Part shown: in pieces, positions 34,884 to 51,000 of the stretch
Position numbering within the stretch: position 1 is the stretch's first letter
How the letters are laid out: every line of letters starts with the position of its first letter
Origin: Melampsora larici-populina 98AG31
Taxonomy: Eukaryota; Basidiomycota; Pucciniomycetes; Pucciniales; Melampsoraceae
NCBI RefSeq assembly: GCF_000204055.1
Contig: NW_006768774.1
Span: 1,317,819 to 1,381,818, forward strand
Direction of reading: 5' to 3'
Length of the DNA: 64,000 nt
Program-made: the position numbers and the translations under genes
Notes under the pieces: model-generated
Seen by the model: only the letters and a program-made list of their open reading frames with translations
The model's database searches: none
Told to the model about the DNA's origin: nothing

Positions 34884-36344
34884 ATGCCCACTCGCGACAA
34901 TCCAGAATACGACATACAAATAAACGAGCTCCTTTCAAACTCCTTTATGTTCAATCACATCCGGAAACTTCAGCAGTACGCAGCAGATGATGACGATAGT
35001 GACAAGGCTTTCTTGGCCCTAGAGTTGACGGATGAACAGATGAATTATGAACAAAAGAACCGAAGAAGAAGGATCAAACGTGAAAGAGAAGAGGCCAATG
35101 CACGCCTTGGTAGAGATTACTTTAATGAAAATGCCCGCTGGGCTGGAGAGATTTTTGAGAGACGCTTCAGAATGAGCAGAGATATGTTTTTGGATATTTG
35201 TGCAAAACTTGAAGCCCATGATATCTTTTGGGTCCAAAGATATGTAGGACCTTTTCTTTCTACATGATTTCAAAGTGCCTGTATCTGATCTGATTTGCCA
35301 TGTTCTGTAGGACTGCTGCCTTCAGCTTGGCCTATCAACTTTACAAAAGGCCACTTGCGCTATTCGTCAGTTGGCTTATGGTGTTTCAGCGAATATAATA
35401 GATGAATATGTGGAAATTGGGGAGACAACTGCAATTTTATGTTTGAAGAAGTTTGTACAAGGAATCATTGAAATCTATGGACCCGAATTCCTCCGCCCAC
35501 CAACAGAAGATGAGCTTGAAAAAATAACCAAAGAGTACGAGATTCGTGGATTTCCAGGTTGCAAAGGTTCCATTGATGGAATGCATTGGGTTTGGAAAAA
35601 CTGTCCATCAGGATGGGCGGGACAGTTTCAAGGGAAAGAAAAGAAAACCACCATTGTTCTTGAAGCGGTGGCCTCTCAAAGCACCCGGATATGGCATGCA
35701 TTTTTTGGAGTTCCAGGCTCTCTTAATGATATCAATGTACTTAATCAAAGTGCCCTCTTTGATAGATTTTTATCTGGTAAGTAATCATTTGTATTTTTTT
35801 AAAAACTCACAAACTGATGATGGGTCAAACAGGCACCGATGAATTATTGAATTTTGAAGTCAATAATAATCAATACACACGAGGTTATTACCTTGCTGAT
35901 GGTATCTACCCAGCATGGCCCGTTTTAATCAAGACCATCAATAATCCGGGAGATGACGCATCAGCACATTATGCCAAATTACAAGAAACCGCTCGAAAGG
36001 ATATTGAACGAGCTTTTGGTGGCCTTCAAGCCCGATGGCATATCCTTGCTGTACCATGCAGACTTTGGGCTTTGCATGATATACGTAGGATTATGTACGC
36101 ATGTATTGTTCTTCACAATATGATTGTTGAAGATAGGGAGGTTGTAGATCCCAAAGTCGAAGATTTTCCTACAAACACAGAGATTGTTCCAAATCACCGT
36201 GATCCACGAATCCGACAAACACCTACTCAGTTGGTATCAAACTATCTCGATTTACGAAATTCTGAATTACATCGCCGACTCATGAATGATCTCAAGATTC
36301 ATAACTGGATGGCACGAGGGGCACAGGTTGGTAGAGGTAGATGA
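34884..36344 (+). CDS. PIF/Harbinger DDE transposase (HARBI1-like nuclease)
   Basis: Exons 34884-35243, 35311-35776 and 35833-36344 join in phase and give 445 residues. A charged N-terminus (RRRRIKREREE) leads to a conserved FERRFRMSRDMF helix and LQKATCAIRQLAYG. The three catalytic acids are in place: GSIDGMHW (Asp209), GSLNDINVL (Asp260) and RKDIERAFGGLQARW (Glu334). These are the standard Harbinger motifs, followed by ACIVLHNMIVEDR at the C-terminal side of the fold. The length is normal for the family. The nuclease cuts at TIR ends and needs the Myb-like partner, encoded on the other strand, for nuclear import and TIR binding (known for this superfamily). No damage is visible. Confidence 0.92.
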
Positions 36345-36761
36345 ATCAAGACTTTTCATCTCTTTGGAATTGGGTCTATACAAGCAACCAGAAACAATGT
36401 GAAGCAATCAAAAATTAAAATGAAATGATAAACAGAAAGAAGAGAAAACAATAACATCTATTTAACAAAAATTGAAGAACATGAGAATTTTGAATCTTTA
36501 ATGAAAAGGAACTCTCTGAATAGATTGATTCTAAGGCCTCTTCTTTTTTAAAATCGATTGAATCTAAAAATACTATTTGAGTTAAAATCAATTGAATCTG
36601 AAAATACTATTCAAGTTAAATTCATTGAGTCTAAAAAGACTTATTTGAGTTAAAGTGATCAAGTGTGAAAAATCATATTGGGTGTCTAATGTACAATATT
36701 GTTTTGAGTTGAGTGATTCTAAAAAGACAACTCGAGTTAAATCTATTGACTTTAAATGATA

Positions 36762-37758
36762 TTAAATTGATGAGGATGAAGATTCGTCCTGAGTTTGATA
36801 CTTTTCTTTTAAACGTTGTTGCATCATTCTGAGGACCTCCTTAGCAACAGGAGTGTGACAATTTTCCTCCGACATCATTAATACTTTCAGCTCGTTGACT
36901 TGAACTAAACTGGCTTTGGCTTCAGCATCAGCCTTGGCCATATCCTTTGCCACCTCATTACCTTCCTGGATAGCCTTTAGTCGGAGTTCAGCTAAATCAT
37001 TGTTGCGTTTGATTTGTTCTTGACGAGTCTTTTCCACCTCTTCAGCCTTTGCATCGTCAAAACGCTTCCGTTTCGATTTTTTGGTTCCAATTGGTCGTTC
37101 TGGGCTAGTGGCACGAGGGGTACTGGGATTGGAGGACTCGGAGGCCGCTTCGCTAGAGGGGATGCTAGCGATCACCATCGCTAATGGACCAGGAGGAGGT
37201 TGTGGGGTAATCCATTTGGGTGCAGTCGACAGAATCCTCCAAGCTGGGAGGGATTTGAAGTGATATCGCGGGTTCATTTCATCGTAGATCTTGATTGCGA
37301 GATCCGGCCAATCGGTCTTGACAGTGCCACTGGGAGGCTCACGTTCGATCTGGGCATAGATCAATGAGAACTTGAGGGTGGCTGTCTTCAAAGAGGCCCA
37401 TCTACAAAGTGTAATACAAATAATCAGTTTGATTATTTGAAATCATTTACAATATAAAAACAACTTGCCTTATTTTGACTGAATTTACATCTCGCTTCTC
37501 AAAAGGTGAGATCGAGTTGAGATAATCGGTCACTCGTAGGAAAAAGACCTCGCCGCTCTGATTTGTTCCGAATTCGGGTTGCTGGCTGATGTGAAGCCAA
37601 GCCTCGGCTAGCTTCTCCTCTTCGGCCGAAGACCAGTTGTTCGATTTTTTCTTTTTTGATTTAATTTGATTGTTTGAAAATTGATTGTTTTGTTTGTTGT
37701 CTTGAGTATCTTCAAAATTATGAATTGATTGTTCTTCAAGTTCATTGAGTTGATTCAT
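36762..37758 (-). CDS. Harbinger ORF1: Myb/SANT-like, NAM-associated DNA-binding protein
   Basis: Two exons, 37469-37758 and 36762-37401, give 309 residues. The join uses a GC-AG intron (donor GCAAGT), which keeps frame and restores SVKIRWASLKTATLKF, the typical helix of this family. The N-terminus is Asn/Gln-rich, then KKKKSNNWSSAEEEKLAEAW marks the first SANT helix. The C-terminal half has a Pro-rich linker, a Lys-Arg nuclear signal (KKSKRKRF) and a long charged coiled coil, as in NAM-associated C-terminal domains. It partners the transposase on the opposite strand. Its Ser-rich tail ends at 36762, about 420 bp from the convergent transposase stop. Confidence 0.85.
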
Positions 37759-38035: not shown

Positions 38036-38765
38036 CTGTGTGATTATGGGTGAAAATGTTGGTTCAGCATCAAGAATTTTTTCAAATCACACCTCAAAGT
38101 GCTCAACTTGAAACACATCCCCAATCTCAAACCCACTGTTAGCCACTATTGTTTCAGATGAGGGGTCTGAGAACAAGGATTGGGATGAGGATGAGCTTTT
38201 TGGTGATTAACTTTAATGAATGTTGATGAGATGTATGGCAGTACTGTTATGAGGTAACACAAAGATGCTGTATCTGATGTTGTCAAGTGTTTTTTTACCT
38301 TTTTTGCTTTCTAGGGGGATTTTAAAACCTCAGTGGCACACCTCAGCACCCCCACAATAGGTGTGGCTTTGGAAAGTTCAAAATCTGCGCCCGGGCCTGC
38401 CCCAAATTCAAAACCCATACCCACCACGTGAATATAGTGTCTTTGGGTAGGTTTGGTTTTGGACCGTTCAAGGTGGTGTAATACAAGAATGAGGCTCAAT
38501 TGAGTTGATCAAGGGTGAATAACTTCTCCTTGAGTTTATAACACTTTTTTAAAGACCCATTGACATATTTATCTTTGTCAGGATTATCTTTGACTCTAAC
38601 CAGACAATTTTTTTTCTATGGTTTACTAGGTTCATTGAGTGCCTTGAGCAACTCTTTATTTTGATGAGCTTGCTTTTTCAATCTTTTGCATTCAGCATAC
38701 AGCTTTGGGTTCTCATCATCAGTTCCTTCCAATGATGCAAGAAAAGAAAACAATACCTACATCTC
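38036..38765. other. Gene-free gap between Harbinger and LTR elements
   Basis: No gene recognised. CACGTGGTGGG-type words occur here (38418-38430, minus strand) and again at 33293 (plus), hinting at one more dispersed repeat family. ATCTC at 38761-38765 is the left target duplication of the LTR element. Confidence 0.5.
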
Positions 38766-38930
38766 TGTTATGAGCATATTACCACTTATACACATATGCT
38801 TGTACTGTGCATGTCCGCGCTCCCATGTCTACCCTTGACTGAGCGCTGTGACTTTGCTTCTTCTCTATGTTGCAATCTCATTATCAAAGCACAACATCCT
38901 AGCTCCTGTCCCTCACGTCAGACCCTAACA
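38766..38930 (+). repeat. Left LTR (165 bp)
   Basis: Identical to the right LTR except A instead of G at 38825, which is CCATG here and CCGTG in the right copy, a transition at a CpG. The near identity implies a fairly recent insertion. Confidence 0.95.
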
Positions 38931-38931
38931 T

Positions 38932-38941
38932 ATTGCAACAT
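38932..38941 (+). promoter_or_regulatory. Probable self-primer binding site
   Basis: ATTGCAACAT lies one base after the left LTR, where a primer binding site belongs. It is the exact reverse complement of ATGTTGCAAT inside the LTR (38867-38876). In Tf1-type elements the 5' end of the element RNA folds back onto the primer binding site and primes reverse transcription; this arrangement fits. It predicts transcription start near 38866-38867. Confidence 0.65.
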
Positions 38942-39158
38942 CTGTCATATTAAGGGACCCGAGCAACTGGATTCAAGTTAAGAAGAAAAGAAGACCACCA
39001 AATCTTAAGAAGAAAAGAAAAGAAAGTTTAAAGTTAATCTAAAGAACCAAAGATTTATTAAAGTTTAAATTAAAGTTAAGATTGAAATAGAAGTGTAAAG
39101 ACTAAACTTTAAACATCATTTTGAAACTACAACGGAAGCACCACTCTACCCCGCATTC

Positions 39159-42100
39159 TCAAGATGTGCTCCGAAACCGAAAATCCGTCGGATACTCGAC
39201 GGAGCATCCGACGGTTCCGGATGTCGGATGAGGCCTTGGAGCTATCCGGTTCCCGGATACTCCGGCCGGTTCGGTTATCGGATGAGGGGGTCAGAAAATG
39301 CGATATCCGTCGGATATCCGGCGGATATTTGCATATCATTGCAGTCTCAGGTAGCCGTGTGTTTACATCAATTTAAGGAAAAATATTGAATAAAAAGGGA
39401 AACAAGATGATAAAAAAAATAAAAACTAATCACTATCATCCTCAGCATCACGGCTAGGTTTCAAAGGGCCAAACACCCGATGCCAATCTTTCACACACAA
39501 GAGAGCCTCAACGTGTAAGGACGCGAGATTAGTACGCTGAGGCCCCAAGATCCTTTTTGTCTTGTTAAAAATCCCCTCCGACGGACAGCTAGTTGCTGGA
39601 ATGGCAAGGAAGGTCATGGCCATTTTTGCCAATGCAGGATACATATCGCTACCACGTTTTTTCCAAAAATCTAGGACCTTAGTGTCGCGGGATTCGAGTT
39701 TATCGTTGAGATATTGAGTGATCTCCGCACTGATCGAATGGTCCTGTGGAGCGTCTGGGGCACCAAAAATAGCGTCTTCGAAGTACTCGGAAGTAGACGT
39801 TGCAGTGGATTTCCTGGTGGTAGTTGGAGTGGGCATTGAATCATCGACTTCATATTTCAAGGCCTCTAGTTCAAATGTTGACCTGATGTCTGAAGTAAAG
39901 AGGTCGTACTCAGAAAAAAACATGGATCGTTCCTTTTGGTAAATGAGACATACTTCCTGATCAGTACAACCTCAAAGTAAGATGAGTATTAAGAAACTCA
40001 CTTGAAAATAGCTCATTTTGAGGCGTGGATCCAGGAGGGTAGCACAGACTGGCGCAGGTTTAGTAAGGACTTTCTTGAAGTAGTCTTCAAGTTTTGAGAT
40101 CATGTTTTTAGACGCGGGTTGAAGTTGATCGTGATCGTATTGATGGCGTACCTAGATGTACATTAAGTCACATTAGCCAATTATAATTAATGTGTATTTA
40201 AAATCAAAAAGATACAAATACTTACTAATCTTAATTTTTGCAAGATTGCAACATACAAAGGAACAACTTGATGCATTGTTGGATACTTTGACTTACAGAG
40301 TATGTCAGTTGCTTCGCTCAGAGGTTCCAAGAAGTTGCACATTTGTTTGACGTAATCCCACTCGAGCCCGGAGAGCGCATACTTTTTGTACTCGTTTTGC
40401 AGGCAGAATTCATCACATGCTTCTCGTAGACGCAAAAGTCTTCGAAACATGTGATATGAAGAGTTCCATCTGGTGGGAACATCGACAATCAGGCGAGTTG
40501 CAGTTTCAGCCGGGTTTGTTTTTGGGGGTGGTTGAACATTGTCGACAGTAGGATCATCTAATAGATAATCGAGAGCCTCAGTGTCAGCAGGATCAGAATT
40601 ATCAGTATCAGGGTCGGCTTGGGCTGATGGAGGATTCGCAGCTGGATTTCTTTGAGGCTGAGGATTGTTTCTTGAAATCTGATTCTTCTTCGCAGCAGCA
40701 GCAATAGCACGCTTGAGCTTGACAATATCAGCGAAATGTTGACCACGTTGAGGGCTGGACCGAGTACAAGTAACTAGACCATGGCATCGATTGTAGATGG
40801 TCTTGAGGTTTACTTGAGTCACGTCGGGTGGGTCGACAAGGTTGTTAATATCCATTAAGTTTGATGAATCTTGCTCTTCGTCCTCGTCGAGAATTTCACC
40901 AAAAACCTTCAGTCCCTCTTTTGCAGCTAGGTTGATAACGTGCGCCACGCAACCATGGACTTGTTTCGTGTGATCGAAAGTGATACCATCTGAATTTGAA
41001 AGGACTCGACCTATAGCAGCGTTTGTACCTACATTATCGGCAGTCATCGCACACAACTTATCGGTAAGTTCATACTTGGTAAGATATTCGATGATTAAAC
41101 CGGCAAAGTTATCGGCGTTGTGTGCACCTGGAAGATTGGGTGTCAGTCAGCTTGAGTTGATCAGATCGATAGAAAACAAGATACACTCACCTTTGATTTC
41201 CGCAATGCCAAGAGTCAGGTCCATAAGTTCCCAGTTCTCCGTTATAAAGTGACCAGTGAGCGACATAAACGGCTTATTATTTGGAGACGTCCATGCGTCT
41301 TGAGTAATGGCGATTGCTTTGCAAGGTCCTAAGAAAAGTTTCTTGATATGATCTTCATGATGATAATAAAGTCTGCGCATATGTTTAGAAATTGCATGTC
41401 GTCCGACAAGCATTCCTTTTACTTCAGGATTGACAAGCTTCAATAATCTTCGGAAGGATTCTTTCTCAACGATTGAGAAGGCGAGGTCGTTATCGGCGAT
41501 GAGATAACATATACTAGTCTTGAGGTTGGAAACATCAAGTATATCCTAACAGTTTTTCGAATCAAAAGAACATGAACATCAGCTATTGTCGATGTGTTCT
41601 GGAGTAAGAAGACAAAAAGACTCGCCATGTGAACTGATTTCATCTTCTTGAAACCTGCAGTCAAGCTTCCTTGTCTTCCATCGATTGGACCGTCATCGCG
41701 GAGATTATGCTTGAAAGTGAGGTGGTTCTTCATCGAAGTAGTACTTCCTTTATGATCGCGTTTCAACTTCGTGCCACATTCTTTTCCATCCCTCATGACG
41801 TAACGACACTGATTGATATCTGAGTTTTCTAATCTTTTAAAATATTTCCATACGTAACTTTTTCGAGTTGACTGAGATTCCGTCGTATCGGAGCTATCGG
41901 CATGGGACAAATCAATTGTGGTTGAAGTGGGGGCTTCGGACATGTTGATCAATTGATTTAAGGTTGATTAATTGAAGTGAGAAGGTCGTTTGCGCGGTGA
42001 TAAGTGGATTTCTCAGACAATTGTAAGGTTTGAGGTGGTGGGGAAGATGATCGAAAACGCCCTTTTCTCTTTTTTTTTATTTTTTTTTTTTTTTGGCTGT

Positions 42101-42246
42101 ACCGGCCGGATATCCGCCGGATAGCCGGCGAGTAGCCGGTTCGAGTGTCGGATGGGGGTCCAGCATGCCGGATAGTCAAAAATAACCGTCGGTCCGGATG
42201 TCGGATGGAGCCGACCACGCCGGATATTGACCGGAGCACATCTTGA
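39159..42246 (-). mobile_element. hAT transposon, complete, nested in the LTR element
   Basis: A 3088-bp element with 15-bp perfect terminal inverted repeats, TCAAGATGTGCTCCG, and an 8-bp target duplication, CCGCATTC (39151-39158 and 42247-42254), both diagnostic of hAT. The subterminal 180-200 bp at each end are packed with CCGGAT/TCGGAT words, likely transposase binding sites. It carries one intact five-exon transposase gene on the minus strand. It interrupts the leader of the LTR retrotransposon upstream of gag, so it is younger than that insertion. Confidence 0.95.
39426..41943 (-). CDS. hAT transposase with BED zinc finger
   Basis: Exons 41635-41943, 41191-41545, 40226-41127, 40002-40151 and 39426-39956 join in phase and give 748 residues from the ATG at 41943. 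The first donor (GTTCAC) is weak; the others are standard. A BED finger occupies about residues 30-85 (YVWKYF, Cys pair in the QCRYV...ECGTK loop, NHLTFKH). The catalytic region has ITQDAWTS (Asp186), CAMTADNVGTN (Asp252) and HGCVAHVINLAAK, then an inserted disordered stretch. VPTRWNSSYHMFRRL is the hAT RW motif. The C-terminal dimerisation region reads DFWKKRGSDMYPALAKMA, then ATSCPSEGIF and LHVEALLCVKDW. All key motifs are present and no stop interrupts the frame, so the enzyme may be functional. Confidence 0.93.
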
Positions 42247-42353: not shown

Positions 42354-43562
42354 ATGTCAAACATCACTTTAGAAGATGTCATGCGACAAGTTCAGGATCT
42401 TAATCAACGACTGTTAGCCAAAACCTCTCGACGTCAGGAAGTTGAAAAAGAATTGCAAATAATGAAGGAAGAAAAACAACAGCACTTCCAAAACATTCCA
42501 CAAGCGTCTAATCTCTCAAACCCCGCTCAACAACAACAACAGATCTCTGCTGTCCAGCAACCTTCTCAACACCGTACTCCAAAGGTGGCCACACCCGACA
42601 AATTTGACGGACCAAAAGGCCCAAAAGCCGAAATTTTTATGAATCAACTTGGAATTTACATGCGGTTGAACTCATCTGTGTTTGAAGATGAACAGGCAAA
42701 AGTGGCATTTGCACTATCCTACACAACAGGAAAAGCAAGTATATGGGGTCAGCATTTAATGGATTTAATGTTAGATGAAGCTCAAGTGCACACCGTAACT
42801 TGGTCAAGGTTCATAGATTCATTTAAGGCAACATTTTTTGATGGTGAAAGAGTATTTAAAGCTGAGAAAGACATACGAGACTTAAAGCAAACCAAGGCAG
42901 TGTCAGACTACTGGATCTGATTTTCTGAATTATCGCTTGTTGTAAAATGGCCTGAATCTGTCCTTATATCTCACTTTCAACAAGGTCTCAAATCCGAAAT
43001 CACTATACATATGGTTAGAGATACCTTTCAAACAGTGGAAGAAATGGCAAAACTGGCGATCAAAATAGACAACACTCTTCATAATCGTAACCCAGATGGC
43101 ATTAATGCGTCAACGTCGACTGTCAGTACACCAATTCAAACCCCCGATCCCAACGCGATGGACTGCTCGGCTTATAAACTCAACATATCAAGTGAGGAGT
43201 ATAATTGTAGAGGTGCAATTGGTGCTTGTTATGAGTGTGGGAAGACCGGTCACTTTATAGGAAACTGTCCGAGAAAAAGGGGAGCGAAGAGGGGGTATTT
43301 TAGAGGTTCGGGTTATCAGGCAAGATCAAATCACTATGGGGGATCAAGTCATTCAAGAATTAGTGAATTAGAAAGTCAGTTGAAGGCGCGTATAGATGAA
43401 TATGATGAAAAGATGGGTAGAAGTGATAAAGAGAAGAAGGAGGAAGGAAGAGCAGGAATGGCAAAAAATGGAGATGCTTGCACTGCGTCCGCCAGAGCCG
43501 TTCTCGACGTCGAGATGGTCATAAACTACAAAGGGGCCCTTTGTAGTCGGCAACGTTCTTGA
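42354..43562 (+). pseudogene. gag of the LTR retrotransposon, interrupted by TGA
   Basis: The ATG at 42354 (MSNITLEDV) opens a frame that continues in the same register past a TGA at 42918-42920 (after DYW-I) to 43562. The first part has a coiled coil and a Gln-rich linker, then the retrotransposon gag core (KFDGPKGPKAE, ALSYTTGKASIWGQ, WSRFIDSFKATFFD). After the stop the frame resumes with FSELSL and reaches a CCHC zinc knuckle, CYECGKTGHFIGNC, near 43228-43269. TGA where gag proteins usually keep an Arg-rich stretch suggests a CGA to TGA change. The end of the frame runs into a 111-bp inverted repeat. Confidence 0.88.
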
Positions 43563-43591
43563 CGTCGAGAACGACTCTGGCGGATGCAGTG
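43481..43591. repeat. 111-bp inverted repeat at the gag-pol border
   Basis: Arms of about 34 bp (43481-43514 and 43558-43591; CACTGCGTCCGCCAGAGC on the left) pair with few mismatches. In the centre, ACTACAAAGGG and CCCTTTGTAGT flank a single G, so the whole unit can form a nearly continuous hairpin. It lies exactly between gag and pol. Confidence 0.85.
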
Positions 43592-46500
43592 TTGGGATTG
43601 AAGGTTGTGCCTCCCCCGAGCGTAATCAATTTAGATTCAAATAGAGATATTATCGATAGTCTTGAAATAAATGATACTCGTGTTATTGATAAGATCCAAC
43701 TATTTGACCCTAAAACTGCCACAACCAAATTTGCTCGAGCCCTAATTGACAGTGGTGCCACGCATGAGGCAATGAGCAAGAAATTTGCAAGTGAGGCAAA
43801 ATTCGAGACTTCACCCCTAGACCAGCAAAGAAGCGTAACCGGCTTCAGTGGTCATGTGTCAATCGTGACTCACACAGGAGACTACTGTGTGAACAATGAA
43901 TTCCCTCCGACTACCTTCATCATAACCAAATTACGCGACAAATACGACGTTATCTTAGGAATGCCCTGGATCAGAATGAATCATCACCTGGTCGACTGGA
44001 CAAACGGATGCTTGAAGAATTCTGATAGAACTGAAATTGCGACCGCTTCATTGGTCTCGTTGCTGCCGACAAAATCCTCGATGGACCACATTACAAGGCC
44101 AAAGAGGAACGCTAGGAACAGTAGCAAGGGGGTGCAAGTCTTGAATGACTTATCTACACCCCCGCAATGTGAGTTCGATTTTAACATTAATCCCATGACT
44201 CCTGAATCAGCTGGCGAGTGTGTCTCTCTCCTAGAAAACTCAACTCCCACCAAACACCAACATACTGGCATTAGGGACGACATCAAAATGGAAAAGCTGC
44301 CAAGTGAATCTCTACAACTACCGAAAACAACCTCAAAGGACCACAAAGGAGACCTGGAGAGGAACGCTAGGGTTGTAGAGATGGGGGTTAAGTCCGCAAT
44401 AGACTTGTCAAACCCCCCGCAGAGTGAGTGCGATAACCTTGTCAGACAAAACATCCATAGAGTAGCTAGCAAGCAAAGATCTCCTCCTATAACATTTGCT
44501 AAAGCAGGTACTACAATACGACGTCTATTCGGTCGGCATACCATGGCTAAACCCACAACAACAATGATTGATTCAGCAAGTGCGTCATGGAACTTATTGG
44601 CCAAACTAGCAGTTGAAGCGTCAAAAGGAAAAGACGACAAGCCAGCATCTGAATTAGTTCCACCGTGCTATCATGAATACATTGAAATGTTTGAAAAGGC
44701 TAAATCAAACGTACTTCCTCCAAGACGACCTTACGATTTTAGAGTAGATCTTGTAGAAGGTGCAACACCACAAGCAGGACAAATAATACCTTTGTCACCC
44801 AAAGAATCCGAAGTTCTTAATGAAATGATAGAAAAAGGATTAGCTAATGGAACCCTCCGCCGCACAACTTCACCTTGGGCTGCACCAGTCCTCTTTACAG
44901 GAAAAAAGGATGGAAATTTAAGGCCTTGTTTTGATTATCAAAAGTTGAATGCTCTTACAGTCAAAAAAAGATATCCCCTGCCTCTCACAATGGAGCTAGT
45001 TGATAGTCTATTGGATGCAGATCAATTCACCAGCCTCGATATGAGAAATGGATACAACAATCTGAGAGTTTGAGAAGGAGACGAAGCAAAACTAGCATTC
45101 ATCTGCAAAGAAGGTCAATTTGAGCCTCTGACTATGCCCTTTGGTCCAACTGGAGCTCCGGGTTTCTTCCAATTTTTTATACAGGATATTCTCAAAGCGC
45201 ATATTGGAAAGGACGTGGCCGCATACCAGGATGACATTTTAATCTATACTAAGCCAGGAGTTGATCATGAAAAAGTTGTCAAAGAAGTACTTGATATATT
45301 GAAAAAGCAAAACGTGTGGCTGAAGCCTGAGAAGTGCAAGTTCTTCAAGAAGGAGATTGGGTACCTAGGATTAGTCATATCTCGAAATCAAATAAGGATG
45401 GATGAGACTAAGGTGCAAGCTGTGTGTGATTGGCCAGCACCAAAAAATCTATCAGAAGTATTAAAATTTTTAGGCTTCTCAAATTTCTATCGAAGATTCA
45501 TACATCATTTCTCTAAGATAGCTAGACCTCTTCATGAATTATCACAAGCAGATGTCAAATTTGAATGGACAGATGAGAGAAATCAGGCTTTTGAAAGTTT
45601 AAAGAAAGCGTTTACAACTGCACCGGTATTAACAATAGCGGATCCTTATCGACCATTCATACTGGAATGTGATTGCTCGGACTTTGCACTAGGTGCAGTC
45701 CTGTCTCAAGTATCAGCTGAAGATAATCAATTACACCCAGTAGCCTTCTTATCACGTTCTCTAATAAAGGCAGAGAGAAACTATGAAATATTTGATAAAG
45801 AACTATTAGCGGTCATCTCAGCTTTCAAAGAGTGGCGTCAGTATTTAGAGGGAAATCCTAATAGACTGAATGTAATAGTATACACCGACCACAAAAACCT
45901 CCAATCACTGATGACGACAAAAGAACTCACGAGAAGGCAAGCGCGTTGGGCCAAAACGCTGGGTAATTTCGACTTTGAAATCAGATTTAGACCGGGGAAA
46001 GACTCAAGCAAACCTGATGCCCTATCTCGTAGACCAGATCTCAAACCTAAGGATCATGAAAAACTATCTTTTGGACAACTCCTCAAACCTGAAAATTTAC
46101 CAAATGATGCATTTATAGAATTGTTAGACCTTATTGACTCATGGATAATTGATGAATCCATTGGAATAAACTCTTTGGACCATGTCGACTCGTGGATTGT
46201 GAATGATTCAATTAGCATGGATGAAATCGAAGCAGAACCGAAAAGAAAAGATGTATGGAGCGATGAGCGCATAATTCAAGAAATCAGATCAAAATCATGT
46301 CAGGACAAAAGAATCATGGACGTAGCCACCTTATGTAATGAACTACCAAATGCAAAATTGATGAAAGATTACTCTTACACCGATGGGATACTGTACAAGA
46401 AAGAAAAGTTAGTAGTTCCAAATGTAAACGAAATCAAACTGCAAATACTACGATCTCGCCACGACAGCCTACTGGCTGGACACCCAGGACGCATGAGAAC

Positions 46501-47740
46501 ACTAATGTTGATTAAAAGGACGTTCTATTGGCCGTCGATGAAAGCATACATCAACAAATACGATGGATGTCAATCATGTCAAAGAGTTAAGACCCGCACA
46601 ACCAAGCCGTACGGTAGCCTTCAGCCACTTCCAATACCTGCTGGTCCATGGGTAGATATTTGTTACAACATGATCACTGACTTACCAATCTCCAAAGAGC
46701 ATGACTGCATTCTGACAGTAGTTGACAGGTTTACAAAAATGGTGCACTTTCTCCCTTGCAACAAGACCATGACCTCCGAAGAACTTGCAACGCTAATGTT
46801 AAGAAACGTATGGAAGATTCATGGAACACCGCGTACAATTACTTCTGATAGGGGCAATATCTTTATCTCGAAGCTGACAAAAGACATGAATCGCAAATTG
46901 GGGATACAAACGCAGTCTTCGACAGCTTACCATCCGCAAACGGATGGTCAATCAGAAATTACTAACAAAGCCGTTGAGCAATTTCTAAGACACTTTACAG
47001 CGTATAAGCAAGATGACTGGGTCGACCTACTCCCAATGGCCGAATTCTCGTACAATAACAACTTACACGTATCCATTGGAATGTCACCTTTTCGAGCAAA
47101 TTATGGATTTGACGTCAGCTTTTCAGGAACTCCTACGCAAGAACAGTGCCTACCAGCGGTTGAAGCAAGATTCTCTCAATTAAATGACATTCACAATGAA
47201 CTGAAAGCGGCAATGAAAGAAGCTCAAGAAGCCATGGCTGAAAATTATGATAGAAAAGTACTGGCATCACCGACGTGGAACATTGGACAAGAAGTATGGT
47301 TGAGCAGCAAACATGTCTCAACGACCCGACCCACTGCTAAGTTTTCACATAAATGGCTAGGCCCGTTCAAAATTGAACAAAGAGTCTCCACTAACACATA
47401 TAAATTGATTCTGCCAAAAGAAATGCAGGAAATACATCCCGTCTTTCATGTCAATCTACTACGAGAATATGTCAAAAGTCAGATAGAAGGTCAAGAAGAC
47501 ATCCCTCCGGACGCAATAATGATACAAGGCAATGAAGAATATGAACTTAATGAAATTTTAAACAGGAGGAAAAGGAGAGGGAAAATAGAGTATCTGGTTA
47601 GTTGGAAGGGGTATGGTCCTAATCACGATTCATGGGAGCCTGAAAAAGCGCTAGGTAATGCAAAGGAAGTGGTCAAAGATTTCAACAAAAGATATCCTCA
47701 AGCAGAAGAACAATTCAAAAGGACACGGGGAAGGAAGTGA
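43562..47740 (+). pseudogene. pol of the LTR retrotransposon (PR-RT-RH-IN-chromodomain), one TGA
   Basis: The frame is -1 relative to gag and lacks a clear ATG, so expression would need frameshifting or reinitiation. The protease motif ALIDSGAT is near 43740. Reverse transcriptase has LDMRNGYNNL, MPFGPTGAPG and the catalytic YQDD (about 45225). A TGA at 45071-45073 splits the reverse transcriptase frame directly after NNLRV. RNase H follows (ECDCSDFALGAVLSQ, YTDHKNLQ), then integrase with its HHCC-like region (HPGRMRTLMLIKRTFYW, CQSCQRVK), the DDE core (VVDRFTKMVHF, TSDRGNIFIS, Glu in DGQSEITN) and a C-terminal chromodomain (YLVSWKGYGPNHDSWEP). Chromodomains of this type target insertion to chromatin marks. 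Confidence 0.9.
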
Positions 47741-47835
47741 GGGTGAAAGCTTTTTTCCCAATGGGTTTTTAATGCTCACCTGTGGAAAGATATCTAACCC
47801 ATCAAGAGGGGGTGAGGATATGAAGGGGGAGTGGT

Positions 47836-48000
47836 TGTTATGAGCATATTACCACTTATACACATATGCTTGTACTGTGCATGTCCGCGCTCCCGTGTCT
47901 ACCCTTGACTGAGCGCTGTGACTTTGCTTCTTCTCTATGTTGCAATCTCATTATCAAAGCACAACATCCTAGCTCCTGTCCCTCACGTCAGACCCTAACA
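47836..48000 (+). repeat. Right LTR (165 bp)
   Basis: Begins TGTTATGAGC and ends CCCTAACA, one mismatch to the left LTR. It is followed by ATCTC, the target duplication. Confidence 0.95.
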
Positions 48001-51000
48001 ATCTCTCACACTGGTCTCACAGCCAACATATAGCCAACTCTTGATGTAAGCATCTAGTATGTATGCATATTGTGCTTTGGGAATCAAGAATTGTGTGCTG
48101 ATCTTTGCTCCCACCATCTAAAGTGCCTTCCAATGTATGCATATCAGCTTATAAGCAAGAGGAAAACTGTGCCAATCTCTATGCTTACATTGCAAGTTGA
48201 CTGTATTAACCTCGGTTTGGGAAATTTGAGGTGTCTTGGATCTGAAACCTCAGACAGAAGCTTTCTGAGGTTTTGATCTGAGGTAATCTTTGACGCATGA
48301 CAAGACATCTGAGAAAAACCTTGAATAAGATTGGTCCAAGGATCTGCATCCAATGATACCTTGGATTGGGAGCATCTATGTTGGTGGTGTCTCTGAAGGC
48401 TGATACTGAGCCTTTTTTTATCATTTGTATGCTTATGAAGCAGGTAATCATTTGATTATAGTCCTTGTTACTTACTGGCTTTATCTCCATTTCCCCACAG
48501 ATACTATACCATTTTCTTGGTCAATCCTACAAACCATCTCAAAACTGATGACATGGTCATTGTCTACCAATGAAAAGGTTTTAACAAGCACATTTAGCCT
48601 CTCATTGCCATTTGAGTATCCAGTAAATCTCTCTGGTCACTTTCCTCTTCTTATTCATATCCTCAACATTTGATCATTGTTTGATTGACAGGCTCCATTT
48701 GGATCATCAGTTGGCCACAGCATATCTGCACAAAGGTTAAGTCTCTAGATTGTGCAAATGATTTTTTTCAAGATACCTATTTTCAGTAATCCAACCTTGT
48801 CTTAGTAGAACCATGACGGAACATGCGGATCAGTCTTCAAGGTGGGGCTTGACTCAAACAGTCTCCAATCACCATTCTCTTCTCCTGTACGCTGTTTTTA
48901 TAAATATGTATGGTTTGATCTATCTTGAGTGACCCCTTATACCTTGTTATACTTCTCATTAGGTATCAAAAATAGCATGTAAATCCTCTTGACACTTGGT
49001 ATGTTTCTGTCGTGATCATTATTCTAGAACCTGAACACTGATACACTGATCAACTTTAACCTGAATGGCAAAATAGGTAGAGCTCTTACCTGAGTGTACT
49101 CCAGTATACTCAACTGTGGGTCACTACCACCTACCTACGTGGATGTGGGTAATTCCAACGCCAGAGATATCATGCTTTGGATCTGATGATGAGGATCATG
49201 ATAGTCACTTGAGTATCAAGAATGTGAGAAAACATCTCTTTGAATCAAAATCTCTCAGAAAAGCATTATCATATCCTCACTTGTTATTTTTTTGCATAAA
49301 CATAGGCACTGAAAATGGAAAGAGACACACTGGTGTGTGTTGGAACAAATTGTTGACTTGAATCATATGAGTCAGGCACGGATTCACAAAATACGTAAGT
49401 AACGGTTTTGTGATCATAGACGATGAAGGCTTTGAACGGATGATCTTCATTCCACAACACACGCAAAAACATAACAAATAAACCTAGCAGAAGAAAAGAA
49501 AACAAAAGAGAAACAGAACAAAAAACCTACCTATGAGTCAAGCACGGATTCACAAAATACGTAAGTAACGGTTTTGTGATCATAGACAATGAAAGCTTTG
49601 AACAGATGATGTTCTAGCCAAGTGCTGAATCATAGGAGTCTTTATAGACTAGGACACACTAGAAGTGAGAGAGTTAAAACGCGCACAAGTTAGACATTAT
49701 GAAATAAAGAGAAACATAACCAATGATCTGTAGTACATATTCAAATGTGGACCAAAAACAATCACTTAACAACAAATCAAATACCCAACACGTAATGAAT
49801 AACTAACAAATCATATATATATTAAATTTATTCCTATGTTTACAATTTGTACTTTGTGTAATTGTTACTCACAATCTTTCTGACAGAACTTCAACCTAAC
49901 CACATGTTGTATCACACAGACTACTATATCAGATTCTAATGTTGTCAAGACTTTCTTCCTCATCAATCATCCAGAACGTTTTCATCAACTACACATCCTA
50001 TCTGACATCTCTTCTCCGGACATCTTATATCCTTCTAAGACTGTTATACTGATTGTGTGTTGATTGATCTGATTAGGAATCAGATATTCCTCTAGTGTGG
50101 TGCACAAGGAGACAAGCCAATTCCTTGGCCATACCACAGGTATGTTGATTTGCTTTTGTTCAGACTTGCTTCTGTTTCTGACAAGCCTGTCTACAAAACT
50201 CCTCATTTGCAGACCACAACAAGGTACAGGATAACGAAGGGGCTGGATACATGTTGCCAAAGGTGAGTTAATTGCACAACTGCTTCATAACAAGCTTATT
50301 CTGATCCTCAATGGGTTCATTGCACCATTGTACATACAGATCCAGAAGCTCATTGGTGACGGACAAGGGGAAATGGGTAGCAACCCAAAACTTTGGACAC
50401 ACAAAGTTCAATGGTCTAGAGTGGCAGTACATTGAACTCTGTCACAGAGTCCTGCACATCCCTGGTCCCAATGTGCAGGGAGACAAGAGGACAAAACACT
50501 TCCAAGAGATTGGCACCAGCCATACTCTCAAGCTTGGAAGGCATGGAGGTGAAGATGGGAGAATCAGGTATGGATCCAATCCATTTGAAATCAAAGATGT
50601 CCCACAGGTCAGCAAATTGAGGCCACCAGGCCTGCCACCTACCTGCCTGCTTCCACCACTACCTACTGACAATTCCTAGTGGAGGATTTGAAAGTTTTGG
50701 CAGTTGGAGCTCCTTCCATTGAGCAAATCTTTGGATTACATGTGGTATTATAACTCCGTTGAGCCTTCTTGTTTGTTCAAAGTTTTCCTTGTTTTGTTTC
50801 CTGGTATTGTACATTGTCTGCCTATCAGTTTATGTAACATGAGTAAATCTCTGAATAATAATCAAGACAAAAAATTCAATGTCTTTTCTTTTTTGGGGAT
50901 CAATTTCATCACTCTGGGTCCAACTCAATGATTTCCCCCAAATTTGGGGGCATTGTAATTGGTTTTAAACTAGGAGCTAGCATGGTTTTTGTAGCTCCAA

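What the first reader, a model, noticed from the sequence alone, without database searches (positions are those of the whole stretch)
38932..38941. The LTR retrotransposon looks self-primed
ATTGCAACAT, one base after the left LTR, is the exact reverse complement of ATGTTGCAAT at 38867-38876 inside the LTR. In Tf1/sushi-type chromoviruses the 5' end of the element RNA primes its own reverse transcription through such a match, instead of a tRNA. The element has Ty3/gypsy order and a chromodomain, as those elements do. The site also predicts the RNA start, which could be rare direct evidence for this mechanism in a rust element.
Basis: partly seen in the sequence, partly recalled or inferred. Interest (0 to 1): 0.75.

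Follow-up and report, generated by a model that had tools for sequence, protein, structure and literature searches.

The report
Rust-fungus retrotransposon primes its own copying
A jumping gene in a rust-fungus genome probably starts copying its RNA into DNA with the tip of that same RNA instead of a borrowed tRNA, because in its relatives the two matching ten-letter sites change in step; the mechanism is known from fission yeast, but these elements show it unusually clearly.

Summary
ATTGCAACAT (38932-38941) starts one base after the 165-bp left LTR and is the full reverse complement of ATGTTGCAAT (38867-38876). Alone it is only moderately improbable (32 of 50,000 LTR shuffles).

The host genome supplied the decisive test. 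Of 61 related elements examined (60 plus the window), 47 have an exact 10/10 pair, 6 differ at one base, 1 at three, 2 have a binding site without an LTR partner in the stretch read, 4 show no pair and 1 is masked. There are 13 primer sequences; positions 2-6 change on both sides together (16 type changes by parsimony). Complementarity stops sharply: 0 of 51 one base before the pair, 2 of 51 one base after. No tRNA 3' end examined fits. Summed over 51 elements, a second U5-IR duplex beats all 10,000 partner permutations.

This is Tf1-type self-priming, a known mechanism, in rust chromoviruses. The near absence of G-U pairs (1 of 245 at variable positions) suggests, without proving, that the binding site is rewritten from the LTR through the primer. 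RNA 5' ends and primer cleavage remain unshown. This copy carries in-frame stops and a nested hAT element.

The parts
38766..38930 (+). 5' LTR, 165 bp, TGTTA...TAACA; U3 about 38766-38866, R-U5 from 38867
   Evidence: direct repeat with 47836-48000, one difference; 5-bp TSD ATCTC; the U3/R division is inferred from the primer boundary
38867..38876 (+). self-primer site ATGTTGCAAT; predicted first 10 nt of the element RNA
   Evidence: exact reverse complement of the PBS; covariation in relatives
38932..38941 (+). primer-binding site ATTGCAACAT, one base after the LTR
   Evidence: same place in relatives: of 14 with two LTRs compared, 8 print LTR end +2, and in the other 6 the BLAST match ran 2-4 bases past the CA end, which read by eye gives the same place
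38896..38913 (+). LTR side of the predicted U5-IR duplex (ATCC, GCTC, GTCCCT blocks)
   Evidence: duplex prediction -21.2 kcal/mol; the same blocks pair in the single-sequence fold
38953..38972 (+). IR side of the predicted U5-IR duplex (AGGGAC, GAGC, GGAT blocks)
39159..42246 (-). hAT transposon nested in the 5' leader; 15-bp TIRs TCAAGATGTGCTCCG, 8-bp TSD CCGCATTC
   Evidence: inverted repeat I6, flanks read, Dimer_Tnp_hAT and zf-BED hits
42354..43562 (+). gag region from its first ATG: Retrotrans_gag, then a CCHC knuckle; in-frame stop at 42918-42920
   Evidence: ATG and CCHC motif read by eye
43547..47740 (+). pol region: protease, RT, RNase H, integrase, Tf2-1-like SH3, chromodomain; in-frame stop at 45071-45073
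47822..47835 (+). polypurine tract (purine run 47822-47831) next to the 3' LTR
   Evidence: read; similar tracts in relatives
47836..48000 (+). 3' LTR, with the primer-site copy at 47937-47946

Best explanation
The element belongs to a group of chromodomain Ty3/gypsy retrotransposons of a rust genome that self-prime as Tf1 does. Transcription starts at the A of the LTR site (38867). The first 10 nt of the RNA pair with the PBS one base after the 5' LTR, helped by a second duplex between U5 and the sequence after the PBS. RNase H cuts after nt 10, and the freed 10-mer primes minus-strand DNA. Shown here: exact complementarity, its sharp ends, covariation over 13 primer types, the excess U5-IR pairing, no fitting tRNA among those examined. 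Inferred: RNA start, cleavage site, priming. Likely further inference: because the primer itself would be copied into the plus strand, the PBS is periodically rewritten from the LTR.
For: Of 61 elements, 47 exact and 6 one-mismatch pairs. Anchor-only test that ignores the five variable positions: 49 of 61 elements have an anchor pair, one each; 45 of these 49 match at all five positions, the other 4 at four; shuffled partners give a mean of 9.8 and at most 20 exact in 10,000. Named 10-bp helix: 99.0% of 480 cells paired, 92 two-sided changes, against 23-43% paired when slid by 1-3 columns. RNAalifold, given no structure, returns only this helix. Complementarity 0 of 51 at the base before, 2 of 51 at the base after. 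16 type changes by parsimony and 24 single-position changes on a gag tree of 44 exact elements. U5-IR: own pairs sum -990 kcal/mol, best of 10,000 permutations -795. tRNA tests negative.
Against: No RNA 5' end or cleavage site was mapped. The plain MFE fold of 38867-38975 does not form the primer:PBS helix and is not exceptional (z -1.5, 18 of 200 shuffles as good), though a pseudoknotted fold is outside that program. The primer is 10 nt where Tf1 has 11. Four of 61 elements (L073, L080, L099, L115) show no pair even with 700 more bases, L102 matches 7 of 10, L090 and L092 have a PBS without an LTR partner in the stretch read, L108 is masked. For two of the six mismatched elements (L065, L070) the PBS carries the window's type and the LTR another. 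In L066 the 3' LTR lacks the exact primer site. Two of the five measures (pairs with a two-sided change, further pair types) do not exceed its shuffles. Some relatives are near-duplicates (48 of 51 rows distinct), several tree nodes are weak, and the rows were chosen with at least 9 of 10 matches and fixed letters at some positions.
Confidence: 0.93

Rival explanations
1. A host tRNA, whole or a half molecule, primes reverse transcription and the LTR match is coincidence.
For: This is the usual way for LTR elements. An 8-nt match GTTGCAAT exists in a tRNA-Ala(cgc) gene.
Against: No TGG in the 30 bases after the LTR; best tRNA 3'-end match 6 of 10. The tRNA-Ala match lies at position 39, where ARAGORN places an intron. 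Host tRNAs cannot follow 13 co-changing primer types. Not all tRNAs were seen: 53 genes with 23 labels, and several amino acids are missing.
Confidence: 0.02
2. The two sites pair as an RNA structure with another role (packaging, dimerisation, translation or RNA stability) and do not prime.
For: Covariation shows pairing, or copying, but not priming; a second U5-IR duplex also exists.
Against: The pairing site sits where a PBS belongs, one base after the LTR, in the window and in the 14 relatives with two LTRs compared (six of them read by eye), and no tRNA-type site was found in the window. The helix ends at the presumed RNA start. G-U pairs are nearly absent, unlike in the predicted U5-IR duplex (1 of 245 against 63 of 957).
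Confidence: 0.04
3. The window match alone is a chance 10-mer in a degenerate copy.
For: The copy has in-frame stops and a nested hAT element; chance is about 6 in 10,000.
Against: The same anatomy recurs with at most one mismatch in 53 of 61 elements, the window included.
Confidence: 0.01

Closest known systems
Tf1/Tf2 of Schizosaccharomyces pombe (self-primed chromoviruses)
   Same: First bases of the RNA complementary to the PBS; chromodomain; further duplexes between LTR and PBS-adjacent sequence (PMC7175516 and PMC10085805, passages seen).
   Different: 10-nt instead of 11-nt primer; many co-varying primer types in one genome; short LTRs (165 bp here, 152-205 bp aligned in 14 relatives). 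RNA start and cleavage not shown here.
Tj1 of S. japonicus and Tosmo/Tcry elements
   Same: Self-priming proposed from LTR/PBS complementarity (PMC4600332 and PMC10085805, passages).
   Different: Few families; no covariation series in the passages seen.
Tcn1 of Cryptococcus neoformans
   Same: Basidiomycete Ty3/gypsy element for which self-priming was proposed (PMC7175516 passage).
   Different: Relationship to the window element not tested here.
Puccy1/Puccy2 chromovirus clades (basidiomycete-specific, PMC2864245)
   Same: Chromovirus clades named in a survey that includes Puccinia graminis (passages); a possible home of these elements.
   Different: The passages seen say nothing of priming for Puccy; membership not tested.
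Melampsora lini polyprotein Q6R662
   Same: Closest named protein in the 120 listed, 82% over the RT/RNase H query.
   Different: Its LTR and PBS DNA were not looked at.

Membership tests
Tf1/sushi-type self-primed chromoviruses | Ty3/gypsy order of pol with a C-terminal chromodomain | tested here: met
   Protease, RT, RNase H, integrase, SH3_Tf2-1 and Chromo hits in that order.
Tf1/sushi-type self-primed chromoviruses | PBS complementary to an LTR site, 0-5 bp after the LTR, at least 10 bp | tested here: met
   Exact 10 bp at LTR end +2; this meets the criterion in a methods passage of PMC6317226.
Tf1/sushi-type self-primed chromoviruses | No tRNA-complementary PBS | tested here: met
   for the window and on the 53 tRNA genes available; the set is incomplete.
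Tf1/sushi-type self-primed chromoviruses | Further LTR/PBS-adjacent duplexes (pretzel or U5-IR) | tested here: met
   One such duplex, U5-IR: the sum over 51 elements exceeds all 10,000 permutations. For the window alone it is moderate (z -1.8). The other pretzel duplex was not tested.
Tf1/sushi-type self-primed chromoviruses | The LTR site is the 5' end of the RNA | not testable with these tools
   Only the sharp complementarity boundary and the pyrimidine-A context.
Tf1/sushi-type self-primed chromoviruses | RNase H cleavage frees the primer | not testable with these tools
   No biochemical data.
Tf1/sushi-type self-primed chromoviruses | RT/integrase phylogeny within the Tf1/sushi branch | not tested
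   No tree with Tf1 or sushi was made; Ty3 was the best relative among solved structures.
tRNA-primed Ty3/gypsy elements | TGG-starting PBS next to the LTR | tested here: not met
   No TGG in the 30 bases after the window's left LTR.

The most novel reading that the evidence does not exclude
In these elements the primer-binding site is not separately inherited but is rewritten from the LTR through the RNA primer within a few cycles: the plus strand copies the attached primer, so any change in the LTR site appears in the PBS. This would let self-primed elements change primer freely (13 types in one genome) without passing through lasting G-U or mismatched states.
Probability: 0.55. Interest if true: 0.65.

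Novelty: new member of a known kind. Interest (0 to 1): 0.55.

Why it matters
Self-priming was worked out in fission yeast and, in the passages I saw, is inferred elsewhere from complementarity. A rust genome with many diverged copies offers a natural mutational series: it places both ends of the presumed primer to the base, shows which positions vary (2-6) and which seem fixed (1 and 7-10, partly used as anchors here), and makes the inheritance of the primer-binding site testable. It also gives transposon annotators a rule for rust chromoviruses that tRNA-based PBS finders would miss.

Tried and rejected
tRNA priming: rejected. Plain folding of the leader: uninformative for the primer helix. 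Rfam on 38700-39200: nothing up to E 1. Relatives in viral contigs: 3 stretches matched a pattern, none confirmed; that tool may leave out records near the window's own genome. A genome-wide count of matched against crossed primer/PBS types was planned but did not complete. Three Tf1 papers asked for are not held. The match at 40245 lies inside the hAT element and was set aside.

Literature searches for rust or covariation precedents: (listings); passages were read in six of the listed papers. In those listings and passages I saw no self-priming described for a rust element and no covariation study of self-primed elements; the library lacks most subscription journals.

Full report
Observation. 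The left LTR is 38766-38930 and the right 47836-48000, 165 bp each with one difference, flanked by ATCTC on both sides. ATTGCAACAT at 38932-38941 is the exact reverse complement of ATGTTGCAAT at 38867-38876, and the right LTR holds the same site. Against dinucleotide shuffles of the LTR this occurs in 32 of 50,000 cases, or 89 if six offsets are allowed. So it is real but not conclusive by itself.

The element. Pol carries protease, RT, RNase H, integrase, a Tf2-1-like SH3 domain and a chromodomain in Ty3/gypsy order. A hAT transposon (39159-42246; 15-bp TIRs, 8-bp duplication) interrupts the leader, and in-frame stops lie at 42918-42920 and 45071-45073. The closest named protein among the 120 listed is a Melampsora lini polyprotein (82%), ahead of Puccinia triticina (71%) and P. 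graminis (69%) (which scored a capped set of candidates); a Melampsora-like rust is an inference.

The test. The window's genome (98.3 Mb) was searched with the gag piece; 150 of 285 candidates were scored and listed. I picked 60 of the 149 others by hand, ranks 2-21 in order and then a spread down to 34% identity, in each case before seeing that element's LTR (the last 20 after results on the first 40). I fetched the 641 or 791 bases around the gag start for each, and 700 bases more upstream for six. Result for 61 including the window: 47 exact pairs (two of them, L078 and L093, seen only with the extra bases), 6 with one mismatch (L065, L070, L075, L086, L111, L122), L102 with 7 of 10 (counted by eye on the sequence printed), L090 and L092 with a PBS but no LTR partner in the stretch read, L108 masked, and L073, L080, L099, L115 with no pair.

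Covariation. The exact pairs have the form A.....CAAT with 13 different middles. To avoid choosing by complementarity, I located sites by the fixed letters alone: 49 of 61 elements had an anchor pair, one each; 45 matched at all five free positions and 4 at four, while shuffled partners reached 20 at most in 10,000. For the named helix on 48 distinct rows, 99.0% of cells pair, with 92 two-sided changes; slid by one to three columns, 23-43% pair. Two of that tool's five measures (pairs with a two-sided change, further pair types) do not exceed its shuffles. RNAalifold returned this helix and nothing else. A nucleotide gag tree was made of 50 elements (three near-duplicates, L068, L071 and L097, left out; several weak nodes). 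With the six mismatched elements in it, parsimony gives 18 LTR, 19 PBS and 22 joint changes; with the 44 exact ones alone, 16 type changes and 24 changes summed over positions.

Ends of the primer. Complementarity is 0 of 51 at the base before the A and 2 of 51 at the base after the T, though position 12 is complementary in 43 of 51. The three bases before the A are CTC in 29 and TTC in 14 of 51. These rows were selected with at least 9 of 10 matches, an A at position 1, CAA at 7-9 and a PBS starting ATT, so the inner counts are conditioned; the outer ones are not. The 3' LTR was found in 14 of 15 elements tried (not for L067), at 98.7% identity or more; in L066 the 3' LTR lacks the exact primer site. 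The PBS is printed at LTR end +2 in 8 of the 14; in the other 6 the match ran past the CA end and the same place follows by eye.

Second duplex. Passages in PMC10085805 describe Tf1's three-duplex pretzel. U5 and the 45 bases after the PBS pair with -19.4 kcal/mol on average in their own element against -13.7 in crossed pairs; 0 of 10,000 permutations reach the sum. Own partner is the best of 51 in only 6 elements by one ranking and 12 by the other; for the window, 1 other IR and 6 other LTRs do as well or better. Against shuffled IR sequence the mean z is -1.8, with 21 of 51 below -2; the window scores -1.8. The plain fold of the window leader forms the U5-IR blocks but not the primer helix, and its z is -1.5.

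tRNA. Of 61 tRNA matches listed for the genome, 50 loci were read, giving 53 predicted genes. The best 3'-end match is 6 of 10, and there is no TGG in 30 bases. The set lacks several amino acids, but a fixed tRNA could not follow 13 primer types.

Mechanism beyond Tf1. At the free positions only 1 of 245 pairs is G-U, against 63 of 957 in the predicted U5-IR duplex (Fisher p 9e-6, a contrast that leans on predicted pairs and on related sequences). If pairing alone were selected, G-U intermediates should be commoner. Copying of the primer into the plus strand, by analogy with tRNA-primed retroviruses (established knowledge, not tested), would rewrite the PBS from the LTR and explain this. Five of the six one-base mismatches are transitions, as decay after insertion could give; but L065, sister to the window on the tree, has the window's PBS type and a different LTR type, which could be a real intermediate.

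Comparison. Self-priming is established for Tf1 and proposed for other fungal and vertebrate elements and for Cryptococcus Tcn1 (passages). The original Tf1 papers asked for were not held; what I say of primer length comes from a passage of PMC7175516. The searches listed under Tried and rejected showed no rust case. Verdict: a new member of a known kind, with unusually clean comparative evidence.

Noticed in passing
window 39159-42246: A hAT element with perfect 15-bp TIRs and an 8-bp duplication sits in the retrotransposon leader.
   Followed up: partly
window 35781-37442: A DDE_Tnp_4/Plant_tran transposase piece next to a NAM-associated domain reading frame on the other strand, as in PIF/Harbinger-like elements (the label is recalled).
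   Followed up: no
window 49366-49448 and 49532-49614: Direct repeat of 83 nt, 94% alike, copies 166 nt apart start to start.
   Followed up: no
L090 (G000:C34:462719-463359): The end of the LTR plus the PBS is present twice in tandem, and the LTR primer site is not seen.
   Followed up: no
LTRs of 51 elements, roughly 60-70 columns before the primer site: A conserved block around ATGCTTGTACTG in U3, possibly a promoter element.
   Followed up: no
L003, L004: Two LTR copies 87% and 77% like the window's, not followed by a PBS; both keep CTTCTTCTCTATGTTGCAATCT, read on the LTR strand.
   Followed up: partly
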